A stretch of DNA of 64,000 nt from Streptomyces showdoensis. GTDB taxonomy: Bacteria; Actinomycetota; Actinomycetes; Streptomycetales; Streptomycetaceae. This document shows positions 19,793-36,593 of the stretch, one piece after another; the first letter of the stretch is position 1; the number at the start of each line of letters is the position of its first letter. The stretch lies in assembly GCF_039535475.1 (NCBI RefSeq), contig NZ_BAAAXG010000024.1:1-64000 (forward strand), given 5' to 3'. Made by a program: the position numbers and the translations under genes. The notes beneath the pieces were generated by a model. It saw only the letters and a list, made by a program, of their open reading frames with translations, ran no database searches and had not been told where the DNA came from.

Positions 19793-20282
19793 GTGAGCAA
19801 CTTCCGCAGCGATCTCCTCCGTGCCGTCTTCGGCGCGTCGGCCGGTCTCCTCGCGGCCTTCACGGCTCCGGCCGTGGCCGGACCGGGCCGGCCCGGTCCG
19901 CGGCGGGGCCGGTGACCATGGCCGGCGGTGCGGTGACCGACCGCACGCCCGCTGCGGTCAAGGACTCCGCCCGCATCGGTGATGCGCCCCCCTCCGCCGT
20001 CGGAGCGCTTCCGGGGGCGGCCGCTCCGTTTCTGCTCGCCGCGCAAGCAGCACCCGCCCCCGTACCGGCCGACGCGGGCGTGGGGACCTGCGTCGCCGGA
20101 TGGGACCGGCGCGCCTTCCTCACCGCGGCCGGTGCGCTGGGCAGCCACGTCACCGCCCGGCGGACGCCACACCGCCGTCCGCGTCACCGACGGCGCCGGC
20201 CGGGTCCGGGCCGAGCGGCGGCACCCGCGCCATCCCCGACGGAGCGAGCGGCCCGCACAGCGCCTTCGTGACCGTCACCTCG
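19793..20282 (+). pseudogene. Decayed molybdopterin-dependent oxidoreductase
   Basis: Pieces of one protein survive in several frames. They are an N-terminus opening with GTG at 19793 (SNFRSDLLRAVFGASAG, then stop at 19913), a fragment AVTDRTPAAVKD, a fragment PSAVGALPGA, the segment WDRRAFLTAAGALG near 20100, and a C-terminal immunoglobulin-like end (HTAVRVTDGAGRV, then IPDGASGPHSAFVTVT in another frame). From memory, this order matches the N-terminal membrane part and extreme C-terminus of the sulfite-oxidase-like enzymes that precede fasciclin genes in Streptomyces. The catalytic core, several hundred codons, is gone. Confidence 0.6.
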
Positions 20283-20365
20283 ACCACCGGACGGCCCAGG
20301 GCCGCACCGGGAGCACCACCACCCACCCGTACATCCGAAACGCCTCGCTCAAGGAGCAGCCGATC

Positions 20366-21013
20366 ATGATCAGCACCAAGACCCGCCGTACCGCCGTCGC
20401 CGTCGCCGCGGCGGTCCTGTTGCCCTTCTCCCTGGCCGCCTGTTCCGGCTCCGACGCGGGCGACACGGCCGCACCGCCGAGCGCGGCGGGCAACGAGGCG
20501 CAGACCGGCGCGACGCCCACCAAGGACCCGATCACGGGCGACCAGCCCTTCGGCCCCGCCTGCGCCGGCGTCCCGAAGGACGGCGCGGGCTCCTTCGAGG
20601 GCATGGCCAAGGACCCCGTGGCCACCGCCGCGTCGAACAACCCGGCCCTGTCGACGCTGGTGGCGGCGGTCAAGCAGGCGGGCCTGGTCGACACCCTCAA
20701 CAACGCCCAGGACATCACCGTCTTCGCGCCGACGAACGAGGCCTTCGCCAAGATCCCCAAGGCCGACCTCGACAAGGTCCTGGCCGACAAGGCCACCCTC
20801 ACCAAGATCCTCACCTATCACGTCGTGGGCCAGAAGCTCACCCCGAAGCAGCTCGAGAACGGCTCCTTCGAGACCCTCCAGAAGGGCATGATCACAACGA
20901 AGGGCTCCGGCGAGGACTACACCGTCAACGACACCGCGAAGGTGGTCTGCGGCAACGTGAAGACCTCCAACGCCAACGTCTACATCATCGACACCGTCCT
21001 GATGCCGAAGTAA
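20366..21013 (+). CDS. Fasciclin-domain lipoprotein
   Basis: 215-residue cell-surface lipoprotein, related to mycobacterial MPT83/MPT70. It has a signal peptide with lipobox LAAC (Cys about 25), a low-complexity linker, then one FAS1 domain (about 75-213) with both conserved boxes: DITVFAPTNEAFAKIP and the C-terminal NVYIIDTVLMP. ATG at 20366 follows AAGGAG; longer frames run through pseudogene sequence. In mycobacteria this family is controlled by SigK, and a SigK/RskA-type pair lies 3 kb away. It probably acts in adhesion or envelope stress. Confidence 0.9.
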   Translation: MISTKTRRTAVAVAAAVLLPFSLAACSGSDAGDTAAPPSAAGNEAQTGATPTKDPITGDQPFGPACAGVPKDGAGSFEGMAKDPVATAASNNPALSTLVAAVKQAGLVDTLNNAQDITVFAPTNEAFAKIPKADLDKVLADKATLTKILTYHVVGQKLTPKQLENGSFETLQKGMITTKGSGEDYTVNDTAKVVCGNVKTSNANVYIIDTVLMPK

Positions 21014-21063
21014 TCCCGAGCACGGGGCGGGGGACGGCCGGCGGTGGGAGGGCCGGGACCCCG

Positions 21064-21108
21064 GGGCGGGATGCCGGACCCGGGGTTCCCGGGTCCGGCA
21101 TCCCGCCC
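21064..21108. terminator. Bidirectional terminator, 21-bp perfect stem
   Basis: A perfect 21-bp inverted repeat with loop GTT lies between the convergent fasciclin and photolyase-like genes, two bases after the latter's stop codon. It should stop transcription from both sides. Confidence 0.85.
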
Positions 21109-34614: not shown

Positions 34615-34640
34615 GCGGCCCCGGGGCGCCGGTGCGTCCC

Positions 34641-35768
34641 TCAGGCGTGCGGGCTGTCGGCGCCGGCCGCCGCGGGGCGCTCCGCGCGGGCGGGGCAGCA
34701 GCCGATCGGGCAGAGGTCGTGCGAGGGGCCGAGCGCGCCCAGGGCGCAGCGCTCGGCGCGCTGCCCGCGTTCGGTGGCGGCGCGTTCCAGGACGAGGTCG
34801 CGCACGGCCGCCGCGAACCGCGGGTCGGCCCCGACGGTCGCCGAGCGGCGGACCGGGAGGCCGAGCTCGGCGGCTTTGGCGGTGGCCTCGGTGTCGAGGT
34901 CGTAGAGGACCTCCATGTGGTCGGAGACGAAGCCGATGGGGACCATGACGACCGCGGGCGCCCCGGCGCCGTGCAGCTCCTCCAGGTGCTCGCAGATGTC
35001 AGGTTCCAGCCACGGGACGTGCGGGGCGCCGCTGCGCGACTGGTACACGAGCTGCCAGGGGTGTGCGACGCCGGTCTCCTCGCGGACGGCGTCGGCGACC
35101 AGCCGGGCCACGTCCAGGTGCTGCTTCACGTAGGCGCCGCCCTCGCCGTGGTCGGCGACGGGGCCCGAGGTGTCGGCGGCGGAGTCGGGGATGGAGTGCG
35201 TGGTGAACGCGAGGTGCGCCCCGGCCCGCACGGACGGGTCGAGCTCGTCGAGCGAGGCGAGGACGCCCTCGACCATGGGGCGGACGAAGCCGGGGTGGTT
35301 GAAGTAGTGCCGCAGCTTGTCGATGCGGGGCAGCGGGAGTCCCTCCGCTTCCAGCTCGGCGAGGGAGTCCGCCAGGTTCTCGCGGTACTGGCGGCAGCCG
35401 GAGTAGGAGGCGTAGGCGCTGGTGGCGAGGACGGCGATGTGACGCCGGCCGTCGGTGATCATCTCGCGCAGGGTGTCGGTGAGGTACGGCGCCCAGTTCC
35501 GGTTGCCCCAGTAGACCGGCAGGCCGAGGCCGGCCTCGGCGAAGTCCGCGCGCAGGGCGTCGAGCAGCGCGCGGTTCTGGTCGTTGATGGGGCTGACGCC
35601 ACCGAAGAGGAAGTAGTGCTGCCCCACCTCCTTCAGCCGTTCCTTGGGGATGCCACGGCCGCGGGTCACGTTCTCCAGGAACGGGACCACGTCGTCCGGG
35701 CCCTCGGGGCCCCCGAAGGAGAGCAGCAGCAGGGCGTCGTACGGGGCGGGATCGAGCTCGTCGGACAT
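34641..35768 (-). CDS. hemH: Ferrochelatase (coproporphyrin ferrochelatase type)
   Basis: 375 residues. Inserts iron into coproporphyrin III (actinobacterial pathway) or protoporphyrin. Seen: LLLSFGGPEGPDDVVPFLENV at the start, YWGNRNWAPYL, the active-site His in FTTHSIPDSAA and VVMVPIGFVSDHMEVLYDLD. Cysteines in YSGCRQY and the C-terminal DLCPIGCCP match the [2Fe-2S] ligands of mycobacterial ferrochelatase. Its presence in a light-response block suggests heme supply for stress enzymes or porphyrin control, or simply a genome neighbour; the sequence does not decide. Confidence 0.95.
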   Translation of the reverse strand: MSDELDPAPYDALLLLSFGGPEGPDDVVPFLENVTRGRGIPKERLKEVGQHYFLFGGVSPINDQNRALLDALRADFAEAGLGLPVYWGNRNWAPYLTDTLREMITDGRRHIAVLATSAYASYSGCRQYRENLADSLAELEAEGLPLPRIDKLRHYFNHPGFVRPMVEGVLASLDELDPSVRAGAHLAFTTHSIPDSAADTSGPVADHGEGGAYVKQHLDVARLVADAVREETGVAHPWQLVYQSRSGAPHVPWLEPDICEHLEELHGAGAPAVVMVPIGFVSDHMEVLYDLDTEATAKAAELGLPVRRSATVGADPRFAAAVRDLVLERAATERGQRAERCALGALGPSHDLCPIGCCPARAERPAAAGADSPHA

Positions 35769-35990
35769 CGGGGGTTCCTCGCATCGGGCGGACGGTTCGC
35801 TACGGGTCCTTCGGCGCGCGGCCCGGCAGGGATGCGGTGTGCCCCGTACGGGCGACCGCCGGCGCGGCCGAGGCCGCCGGGGGCGGGCGGGGAGGACGAG
35901 GGCCCGGAGCACCGGCTGCGGAGCGCGCATCCGCCGGAGCGCTCCGTACGGAAGAGCTTCCCACCGACACCCTCGAGGAGCGTCCAGCCC

Positions 35991-36593
35991 ATGCGACGAC
36001 GTCCGTCCGCCGCGGAGCGCGTCTCCGCCGTCCTGCTCACCACGGCCCTCGCCTCCCTCGCGCTCGTGCCCACGGCCACGGCGCACTCCGACGGCCCGGC
36101 CCGTGCCGTCGGCACCGTCGACCTCGCCCGCTACACCGGAACCTGGTTCCAACTCGCCGCCGTGCCGCAGCTGTTCGAGCTCCAGTGCGCCAAGAACGTC
36201 AAGGCCGTCTACGGCGCGACCGGCCGCGGCGGGGTCGCCGTGGCCAACAGCTGCACGACCTGGCTGGGCACCTCCAGCCGGATCAGCGGGGAGGCGCTTC
36301 CCCTCGACGCGACGAACACCCGCCTCAACGTCTCCTTCCTGCCCGGCAAGGACGGCTACCGGCACGGCACCGAGGCGAACTACGTCGTGGCGGGCCTGGG
36401 GCCCGCGTACGAGTGGGCCGTGGTGACCGACGAGAGCCGCGCCTCCGGCTTCGTCCTCTCCCGCACTCCCCGCCTGGATCCGGCGCGGACGGCCGACGTC
36501 CTCCGCGCGGTCCGGGGAGCGGGACTCGACCCCGGGGCCTTCCGCACGACCCGGCAGGACGGCGGTGACCCCGCCTGGCGGCTCGTCCCCTGA
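35991..36593 (+). CDS. Secreted lipocalin
   Basis: 200 residues with a signal peptide (about 1-31, ending ATA-HS) and a lipocalin domain. The family motif is VDLARYTGTWFQLAAVPQLFE (G-x-W near residue 50), followed by NYVVAGLGPAYEWAVVTDESR. Bacterial lipocalins bind lipids or isoprenoids in the envelope. ATG at 35991 follows GAGGAG. Its location before crtY suggests a possible carotenoid or lipid carrier, as inference. Confidence 0.88.
   Translation: MRRRPSAAERVSAVLLTTALASLALVPTATAHSDGPARAVGTVDLARYTGTWFQLAAVPQLFELQCAKNVKAVYGATGRGGVAVANSCTTWLGTSSRISGEALPLDATNTRLNVSFLPGKDGYRHGTEANYVVAGLGPAYEWAVVTDESRASGFVLSRTPRLDPARTADVLRAVRGAGLDPGAFRTTRQDGGDPAWRLVP

What the first reader, a model, noticed from the sequence alone, without database searches (positions are those of the whole stretch)
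19793..36593. SigK-regulon genes and a light-sensing module assembled in one island
The M. tuberculosis sigK locus (rskA, sigK, DUF1295, ufaA1, DUF1365, amine oxidase) and its distant fasciclin targets (mpt70/mpt83) are here within 11 kb. They are interleaved with a LitR-type B12 regulator, a second ECF sigma, a 6-4 photolyase-like gene and ferrochelatase, next to carotenoid genes. This suggests that the SigK lipid/fasciclin programme is part of a photo-oxidative response, a link I have not seen stated.
Basis: partly seen in the sequence, partly recalled or inferred. Interest (0 to 1): 0.75.

Follow-up and report, generated by a model that had tools for sequence, protein, structure and literature searches.

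The report
Two-regulon light-damage island in Streptomyces
A soil Streptomyces keeps, side by side, genes that sense light and make protective pigments and DNA-repair enzymes, and genes that remodel membrane lipids under a regulator known from the tuberculosis bacterium; promoter patterns suggest two separate but closely related control circuits against light damage.

Summary
The genes are as described. A SigK-RskA pair, fasciclin lipoprotein, FAD oxidase, DUF1365, CMAS and DUF1295 lie within 11 kb, interleaved with a B12-type LitR, a second ECF sigma (LitS type), an FeS-BCP photolyase and, next door, crt genes.

Promoter motifs learned from other genomes split the island in two. A SigK-type promoter ([AG]CC[AC]ATCCG-N13-TCCGAA) precedes fasciclin, sigK-rskA and the lipid operon (3 window sites; 0.15 in shuffles). 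A sister crt/LitS-type promoter (CGCATCCG-N14-GCGGAA) precedes crtE, photolyase, SDR, DUF427, SRPBCC-litR, lipocalin and two glycosyltransferases. Eight of the genome's 18 exact sites are here; another precedes a class-I photolyase. A putative LitR box lies between divergent sigK and litS. So "one photo-oxidative regulon" is not supported, but a functional link is: in Streptomyces the lipid operon is repeatedly re-paired with SigK-RskA or LitR-LitS.

The same lipid/fasciclin gene types belong to singlet-oxygen responses in Rhodobacter and Chlamydomonas (papers), and M. kansasii fasciclin antigens are light-induced (paper), though sigK and the lipid genes are not in that list. Best reading: LitR-LitS anticipates light, SigK-RskA answers membrane photo-oxidation. 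Wiring is predicted from sequence; the SigK signal is untested.

The parts
19757..19787 (+). SigK-type promoter of the fasciclin unit (GCCCATCCG..GCCGAATAC), 17.9 bits; 579 bp before the fasciclin start because a decayed molybdopterin-oxidoreductase gene lies between
20366..21013 (+). fasciclin (FAS1) lipoprotein, MPT70/MPT83-type domain
   Evidence: PF02469 120 bits; MPT70 1NYO E 5.5e-35
21111..22610 (-). FeS-BCP/(6-4)-type photolyase (DPRP); four cysteines align with those of CryB 3ZXS (Fe-S role recalled)
22746..22777 (-). LitS-type promoter of the photolyase gene, 13.6 bits
22813..22844 (+). LitS-type promoter of SDR1, 14.2 bits
22907..23824 (+). short-chain dehydrogenase SDR1
23941..24696 (-). 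RskA-like anti-sigma factor: HxxxCxxC N-terminus, one hydrophobic segment at about residues 100-121, RskA_C domain
24693..25349 (-). SigK-type ECF sigma; both cysteines that align with M. tuberculosis SigK's pair are present
25435..25465 (-). SigK-type promoter of sigK-rskA (autoregulation), 20.3 bits
25559..25580 (+). putative LitR operator GCGTAAACGATGCGAGTTGTGG, 30.4 bits, between divergent sigK and litS
25704..26366 (+). LitS-type ECF sigma
26493..26523 (+). SigK-type promoter of the lipid operon, 24.0 bits
26615..27871 (+). FAD amine-oxidase-like protein (UfaD-like; equivalence to Rv0449c recalled)
27868..29982 (+). DUF1365 (UfaO-like) and CMAS (UfaM/UfaA1-like) read as one ORF because of a frame break near 28360-28380
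29979..30812 (+). DUF1295 steroid-reductase-like membrane protein
30830..31984 (-). LitR: MerR DNA-binding plus B12-binding domains
31989..32426 (-). SRPBCC protein, apparent operon with litR
32479..32510 (-). LitS-type promoter of SRPBCC-litR, 22.6 bits
32546..33067 (-). DUF427 protein
33105..33136 (-). LitS-type promoter of the DUF427 gene, 23.1 bits
33190..33221 (+). LitS-type promoter of DUF4383-SDR2, 18.8 bits (not an exact match to the pattern)
33359..34614 (+). DUF4383 membrane protein and SDR2
34641..35768 (-). ferrochelatase; only a weak hybrid site (35837-35807, 2.5 bits)
35925..35956 (+). LitS-type promoter of the lipocalin gene (possibly also crtY-crtU), 19.0 bits
35991..36593 (+). 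lipocalin
   Evidence: PF08212 99.9 bits
36745..39520 (+). lycopene cyclase (crtY) and a crtU-like FAD protein (crtU label recalled)
39545..44372 (-). crtE, crtI, crtB and Rieske-DUF5914
44418..44449 (-). LitS-type promoter of crtE, 17.8 bits
46076..49805 (.). divergent glycosyltransferases (46076-47440 -, 47688-49805 +), each with a LitS-type promoter (47517-47486 -, 17.2 bits; 47623-47654 +, 19.8 bits)
16243..16264 (-). second putative LitR box, 24.0 bits, upstream of two small ORFs (15993-16172 - and 15593-15976 -)

Best explanation
Two interlocked ECF-sigma regulons against light damage. (1) LitR-LitS, anticipatory: light switches B12-LitR (inferred from CarH/LitR and S. coelicolor LitR); LitR acts at a box upstream of litS (box predicted here; LitR as its binder inferred); sigma-LitS then transcribes CGCATCCG-N14-GCGGAA promoters: carotenoid genes, two photolyases, SDRs, lipocalin, DUF427, glycosyltransferases, and SRPBCC-litR itself, a positive loop (promoters predicted). 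(2) SigK-RskA, reactive: membrane damage or oxidation releases SigK from RskA (inferred); SigK transcribes [AG]CC[AC]ATCCG-N13-TCCGAA promoters of its own operon, the fasciclin lipoprotein and the FAD oxidase-DUF1365-CMAS-DUF1295 operon (promoters predicted). The lipid operon probably makes methyl-branched or furan fatty acids by UfaD/UfaO/UfaM-like chemistry, which scavenge singlet oxygen (inferred from R. sphaeroides). The two are neighbours because both answer light, not because one sigma reads both.
For: Motifs were learned without the window: SigK-type in 81 of 88 sigK/FAD-oxidase upstreams, crt-type in 20 of 23 crtE/crtY upstreams (seeded with core letters). Window scan: SigK-type at 14 bits or more, 3 sites (0.15 in 300-bp-block base shuffles), before fasciclin, sigK and the FAD oxidase; crt-type, 9 sites (0.58), 8 of them at ordinary promoter distance from a gene. 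Whole genome: 7 exact SigK-type sites (reversed control 0), 6 next to fasciclin, sigK or lipid units; 18 exact LitS-type sites (reversed control 1), 8 in the window, others before a class-I photolyase and an SDR-DUF2867 gene beside a second LitR. Putative LitR box (8 bits or more) in 87 of 96 litS upstreams; window 30.4 bits, best of 30 shuffled windows 14.9. LitR is near LitS in 60 of 80 named loci, crtE in 13. Genus lipid-operon loci (57): SigK/RskA without LitR/LitS 28; LitR, no SigK 12; both 10; neither 7; on the FAD-oxidase tree LitR/LitS adjacency needs at least 6 changes, SigK adjacency 5, the same after relabelling L098 and L127 for regulators about 15 kb away. In six loci of another family of the class the SigK-type site stands before the lipid genes, over 20 bits in 4 and at 7-9 bits (not the locus's best hit) in 2. 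Both SigK cysteines are in 42 of 42 SigK, against 0 and 5 of 19 LitS. Published photo-oxidative sets: R. sphaeroides cfaS, RSP_1090, RSP_1091, SDR, fasciclin, phrA, and the SigK-like R. capsulatus rpoE induced (PMC7074977, passages); Chlamydomonas CFA1/2, DUF1365, DUF1295, fasciclin-like FAS2 (PMC4067076, passages). LitR to litS to crtE in S. coelicolor (PMC12705666, passages).
Against: No expression data for this organism; motif-to-sigma assignment is inferred. The two motifs share ATCCG and GAA, so cross-recognition is possible. M. kansasii after 20 min of light: only 14 genes rose, crt and photolyase genes far more than mpk83/mpk70, and neither sigK nor the SigK-locus lipid genes are in the table (PMC9861118). 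R. capsulatus lacks homologues of RSP_1090, RSP_1091 and the fasciclin (PMC7074977). Outside Streptomyces the lipid operon is rarely near light genes: class-I photolyase within about 5 kb in 2 of 36 genomes asked, of 37; LitR at 100 bits or more in 0 of 37 loci. The DPRP photolyase is in 29 of 55 lipid-operon genomes but within about 15 kb of the operon in only 4 (places), and no LitS-type site was found before 5 DPRP genes in named loci. Of 12 lipid operons with LitR and no SigK in the stretch, 7 have the SigK-type site, 3 a SigK-like site with LitS-like spacing, 2 none. LitR scores 71 bits on NCBIfam CarH (cut-off 400) and lacks the His-132 equivalent.
Confidence: 0.66

Rival explanations
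1. One photo-oxidative regulon: LitS, or LitR through it, reads the SigK lipid/fasciclin genes too, so the whole island switches on with light.
For: Sister motifs; LitR box in the shared sigK/litS gap; lipid promoters in LitR-without-SigK loci mostly carry the C at -35 position 4 that LitS promoters have (9 C: 1 A, against 2 C: 24 A in SigK-only loci); M. kansasii fasciclins light-induced (PMC9861118, passages).
Against: Different spacing and -10 in the window; the base-4 trend gives only 2-3 independent pairs on the tree and is not significant; the LitR box is about 95 bp from the SigK promoter; 10 of the 12 genomes with LitR-without-SigK loci still encode a SigK over the cut-off, in two of them (G428, G444) about 15 kb away, just outside the stretch.
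Confidence: 0.2
2. Ordinary neighbourhood: Streptomyces accessory islands gather stress sigma modules by drift; SigK answers envelope or redox stress unrelated to light.
For: Two other SigK-fasciclin modules in the genome show no hit to the window's light genes within 20 kb; 28 of 57 lipid loci have SigK without LitR and 7 have neither; the SigK signal is described as unknown (PMC7509140, passages); sigK and lipid genes are not in the M. kansasii light list (PMC9861118).
Against: LitR in 22 of 57 lipid loci and repeated gain or loss on the tree; same gene types in published singlet-oxygen responses.
Confidence: 0.27
3. The lipid operon makes cyclopropane or methyl-branched (tuberculostearic-type) acids, not furan acids, and the role is membrane fluidity.
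For: The CMAS part is over the Pfam CMAS cut-off and its best NCBIfam matches are cyclopropane fatty acid synthases, all below their cut-offs; DUF1295 matches reductase and methyltransferase folds weakly.
Against: DUF1365 is the UfaO domain and sits with a FAD protein in the UfaD position (PMC7380195, passages).
Confidence: 0.3

Closest known systems
SigK-RskA regulon of mycobacteria (ECF19)
   Same: Sigma over the SigK family cut-off, RskA_C anti-sigma, cysteine pair, same lipid gene set (gene list of the mycobacterial locus from the finding and recall), fasciclin target, CCATCC..CCGAAT-like promoter (mycobacterial consensus recalled)
   Different: Fasciclin is linked, DUF1365/CMAS are in one reading frame by a frame break, and the locus is embedded in a light island
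LitR-LitS carotenogenesis system of Streptomyces coelicolor (PMC12705666, passages; the 2005 paper is not held)
   Same: B12-type LitR, ECF LitS, crt genes with a shared predicted promoter
   Different: litR and litS are separated by the lipid operon; litR is downstream of a predicted LitS-type promoter; predicted regulon includes two photolyases
RpoE-ChrR (ECF11) singlet-oxygen core regulon of Rhodobacter sphaeroides
   Same: UfaD/UfaO/UfaM-type lipid genes, SDR, photolyase and fasciclin in one stress programme (PMC7074977, PMC5507510, PMC7380195, passages)
   Different: Anti-sigma is RskA type, not over the ChrR cut-off; functions are split between two predicted sigma regulons
LitR clusters of Pseudomonas (PplR/PmlR)
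   Same: LitR beside photolyase, SDR, FAD oxidoreductase and UfaM (PMC9758184, passages)
   Different: LitR represses a sigma-70 promoter and is relieved by a LOV protein; no SigK/RskA mentioned in the passages read

Membership tests
SigK (ECF19) | NCBIfam SigK model over curated cut-off | tested here: met
   275 bits, cut-off 226
SigK (ECF19) | cysteine pair of the SigK disulfide | tested here: met
   Cys163 and Cys213 align with two 4NQW cysteines; 42 of 42 SigK rows; which cysteines form the disulfide is recalled
RskA | RskA_C domain, one membrane segment | tested here: met
   99.7 bits, cut-off 29.4; hydrophobic segment about 100-121
RskA | RskA_N domain over cut-off | tested here: not met
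   22.9 bits, cut-off 27; zf-HC2 24.1 over its cut-off 22.2
SigK regulon | shared promoter before sigK, fasciclin and lipid operon | tested here: met
   3 window sites, 7 exact in the genome
LitR/CarH | MerR plus B12-binding domains, lower axial His | tested here: met
   (PF02310 B12-binding itself is below its cut-off, PF02607 and MerR_1 over); H258, W209, E220, H221 invariant in 16 rows; roles recalled
LitR/CarH | NCBIfam CarH equivalog cut-off; His-132 equivalent | tested here: not met
   71 bits against 400; Glu at that place
LitR/CarH | adenosylcobalamin binding and light response | not testable with these tools
   needs protein
ChrR (ECF11 anti-sigma) | ChrR family model over cut-off | tested here: not met
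   TIGR02451 28 bits against 124.5
FeS-BCP photolyase | DPRP domain, near whole-length match, four cysteines | tested here: met
Furan fatty acid pathway (UfaM/UfaD/UfaO) | CMAS + FAD oxidase + DUF1365 in one unit | tested here: met
Furan fatty acid pathway (UfaM/UfaD/UfaO) | furan fatty acid product | not testable with these tools
   needs lipidomics
LitS | ECF next to LitR that drives crtE | tested here: inconclusive
   LitR near relatives in 60 of 80 loci; that it drives crtE is inferred from the motif and PMC12705666

The most novel reading that the evidence does not exclude
SigK-RskA is the actinobacterial counterpart of RpoE-ChrR: a sensor of photo-oxidised or singlet-oxygen-damaged membrane whose core output is a furan/methyl-branched fatty acid scavenger plus fasciclin, in mycobacteria as well. 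Streptomyces repeatedly placed it beside the LitR-LitS light circuit, with sister promoters, so an anticipatory and a reactive sigma share one protective programme.
Probability: 0.43. Interest if true: 0.8.

Novelty: new variant of a known kind. Interest (0 to 1): 0.62.

Why it matters
The signal that activates SigK is described as still unknown (PMC7509140, passages), although SigK controls major tuberculosis antigens. The comparative evidence here points to one testable class of signal, light-driven oxidation of membrane lipids, and gives harmless Streptomyces strains, exact promoters and a lipid product in which to test it. The two motifs and the putative LitR box also give a predictor of the light regulon in a genus important for drugs.

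Tried and rejected
Rejected: a single shared promoter for the whole island (one search shows two types). Not significant: a switch of -35 base 4 from A to C in lipid promoters next to LitR/LitS; plain counts are striking but the tree gives 2-3 independent pairs. Rejected for the window: a sound DUF1365-CMAS fusion; relatives' DUF1365 matches the window in two frames, and the genes are separate ORFs in 64 of 68 loci. In L070, L084 and L136 they do read as one ORF, which I did not study. Led nowhere: 5+5-letter dyad counts for LitR, LitS and fasciclin upstreams; Rfam and tRNA scans of the window, both empty. Ferrochelatase: only a weak hybrid site, left unassigned. Not done: structure prediction, metagenome and viral scans.

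Data limits: 57 genus loci = 55 places, plus G064, plus L053 from a SigK search. Stretches are about 20 kb or less: SigK lies about 15 kb from the lipid gene in G428 and G444 and LitR about 15 kb away in G417, so the class counts depend on the stretch; the tree counts did not change on relabelling the two that are in the tree. Of the 80 named loci (best 80 kept of 545) some are the same genomes as genus loci, so the 87 of 96 LitR boxes contain duplicates; the seed of that motif came from words enriched in 98 upstreams that included the window. Training for the SigK motif left out the window and L053, but not other close relatives. Controls in scripts are base shuffles, not dinucleotide shuffles.

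
Full report
WHAT IS THERE. The genome is a Streptomyces by its nearest SigK relatives: every named one among the 120 listed is Streptomyces. It has 8.5 Mb in 29 contigs. Genes were called by codon statistics and named by Pfam, NCBIfam and PDB sequence matches. The core is fasciclin - photolyase - SDR - rskA - sigK | litS - FAD oxidase - DUF1365/CMAS - DUF1295 - litR - SRPBCC - DUF427 | DUF4383 - SDR2 - ferrochelatase - lipocalin - crtY - crtU - Rieske - crtB - crtI - crtE, followed by a methyltransferase and two divergent glycosyltransferases.

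HOW USUAL IS IT. SigK over its family cut-off is in 81 of 121 genomes of the family. The DUF1365 lipid gene is in 53 of 150 genus genomes and 43 of 296 phylum genomes. I fetched up to 20 kb around each and annotated 57 genus and 37 other loci. Genus: SigK/RskA without LitR or LitS 28; LitR with (10) or without (2) LitS and no SigK 12; both 10; neither 7 (four of these stretches, L102, L112, L142 and L145, are under 14 kb); fasciclin in 33; DPRP photolyase in 2; crtE in 1 (the window, whose stretch was 28 kb). Other families: SigK/RskA in 6 of 37, LitR at 100 bits or more in 0 of 37; one distant locus (L061) has an 80-bit LitR-like hit, and its contig also carries a class-I photolyase. On the FAD-oxidase tree of 54 rows (quick tree), LitR/LitS adjacency needs at least 6 changes and SigK adjacency 5 (unchanged). 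So the lipid operon is repeatedly re-paired with either regulator, in different orders (L038, L044, L105, L113, window).

PROMOTERS. Upstreams of sigK and the FAD oxidase in genus loci, window and L053 left out, gave [AG]CC[AC]ATCCG-N13-TCCGAA in 81 of 88. Upstreams of crtE and crtY in named LitS loci gave CGCATCCG-N14-GCGGAA in 20 of 23. The motif cores were used as seeds, so these are seeded searches; the window was held out of the training. In the window the SigK type has three sites over 14 bits (0.15 in shuffles): lipid operon 24.0, sigK 20.3, fasciclin unit 17.9. The crt type has nine (0.58 in shuffles): DUF427 23.1, SRPBCC-litR 22.6, glycosyltransferase 19.8, lipocalin 19.0, DUF4383-SDR2 18.8, crtE 17.8, glycosyltransferase 17.2, SDR1 14.2, and one of 14.4 at 16206-16175 that overlaps a ribosome-binding site and may be chance; the photolyase site has 13.6. 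At 8 bits the crt type is much less clean (29 sites against 14.4 in shuffles). Genome-wide exact patterns: SigK type 7, of which 3 in the window, 2 before fasciclin genes on contigs C5 and C29 (identical letters), 1 before a molybdopterin oxidoreductase-fasciclin pair on C25, and 1 inside a gene on C28. LitS type 18, of which 8 in the window. Of the other 10, three precede a class-I photolyase (81 bp), an SDR-DUF2867 gene (76 bp), both beside the genome's second LitR, and an amine oxidase (78 bp); two are intragenic; one has no called gene downstream; four precede a TerD gene, a class-V aminotransferase, a 90-aa ORF without Pfam match and a 236-aa gene I did not identify. Finding both kinds of photolyase gene with a motif trained on crt genes of other species is the best support that this is a light regulon; against it, 5 DPRP genes in named loci had no such site. 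In six loci of another family of the class (code f3, unnamed) the SigK-type motif stands before the lipid genes at over 20 bits in 4 and at 7-9 bits in 2.

LITR BOX. A 22-bp element GCAnAAaCGATGCGAGTTG is in 87 of 96 litS upstreams at 8 bits or more; the window has it at 25559-25580 (30.4 bits) and a second copy at 16243-16264 (24.0); the best of 30 shuffled windows is 14.9. With the exact consensus the first is the only one in the genome; at up to one mismatch the count (8) is below the reversed control (16), so those other than the two window copies are probably chance. That LitR binds the box is inferred.

READING. LitS predicted targets include SRPBCC-litR, so litR and litS would form a positive loop. 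SigK predicted targets are its own operon, fasciclin and the lipid operon, the same kind of set as in mycobacteria (PMC7509140, PMC9861118, passages; exact mycobacterial consensus and gene list partly recalled). The functional link stands on other legs: repeated pairing in the genus; UfaO (a DUF1365 protein), UfaD and UfaM make a furan fatty acid that scavenges singlet oxygen in R. sphaeroides (PMC7380195, passages); the RpoE-ChrR singlet-oxygen regulon holds cfaS, RSP_1090, RSP_1091, an SDR, phrA and a fasciclin, and the SigK-like rpoE of R. capsulatus is itself induced by photo-oxidative stress (PMC7074977, passages), with a core regulon described across species (PMC5507510, PMC6852236, passages); Chlamydomonas singlet-oxygen genes dependent on SAK1 include CFA1, CFA2, DUF1365, DUF1295 and fasciclin-like FAS2 (PMC4067076, passages); UV-B lowers RskA in Nesterenkonia sp. 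Act20 (PMC8965627, passages); M. kansasii mpk83 and mpk70 rise 6- and 3-fold in light (PMC9861118, passages). Against: in that M. kansasii list of 14 light-induced genes dipZ, sigK and the SigK-locus lipid genes are absent, and crt and photolyase genes rise 27-fold or more (crtR 3 and fni 8 excepted); R. capsulatus has no homologues of RSP_1090, RSP_1091 or the fasciclin.

PRIOR ART AND NOVELTY. Searches for a stated SigK-singlet-oxygen or SigK-light link (open-licence library only; listings) showed the papers above; none of the passages I read states that SigK-RskA is the actinobacterial singlet-oxygen system. The 2005 LitS and 2008 SigK-regulon papers were not held, so what they say about promoters or operators is unknown to me. 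I file the island as a new variant of a known kind.

WHAT WOULD CHANGE MY MIND. Expression data. All wiring here is predicted from sequence.

Noticed in passing
window 19793-20277: Degenerate remains (three frames) of a molybdopterin oxidoreductase gene like the one that precedes fasciclin on contig C25; they lie between the SigK-type promoter and fasciclin.
   Followed up: partly
window about 28360-28380: Frame break inside DUF1365: a relative matches residues up to about 166 in one frame and from about 173 in another; real or an assembly error cannot be told.
   Followed up: partly
L256 (G000:C27:240000-259900): Second light locus in the same genome: LitR, class-I photolyase and SDR-DUF2867, the last two with LitS-type promoters.
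   Followed up: partly
window 15593-16264: LitR box upstream of two small ORFs (59 and 127 aa); their role was not studied.
   Followed up: no
L035, L036: Two more SigK-RskA-fasciclin modules in the genome; the C5 one has a DsbD/thioredoxin gene like dipZ beside mpt83/mpt70 (dipZ likeness recalled), the C25 one a molybdopterin oxidoreductase and a second CMAS.
   Followed up: partly
window 30830-31984: LitR has Glu where the solved CarH has His132, while the lower-ligand His and the Trp/Glu/His motif are kept (residue roles recalled).
   Followed up: partly
SigK region 4.2: SigK proteins with RMRDG there (window, L053, L097, L100, L103, L143) tend to have CCCATCC or CCATCC sigK promoters and those with RLRDG mostly CCAATCC, with exceptions such as L143; not tested formally.
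   Followed up: partly
L061: Distant actinobacterial locus with a class-I photolyase, LitR-like protein (80 bits), SRPBCC (69 bits) and the lipid operon on one contig.
   Followed up: no
L070, L084, L136: DUF1365 and CMAS read as one ORF in these loci too.
   Followed up: no
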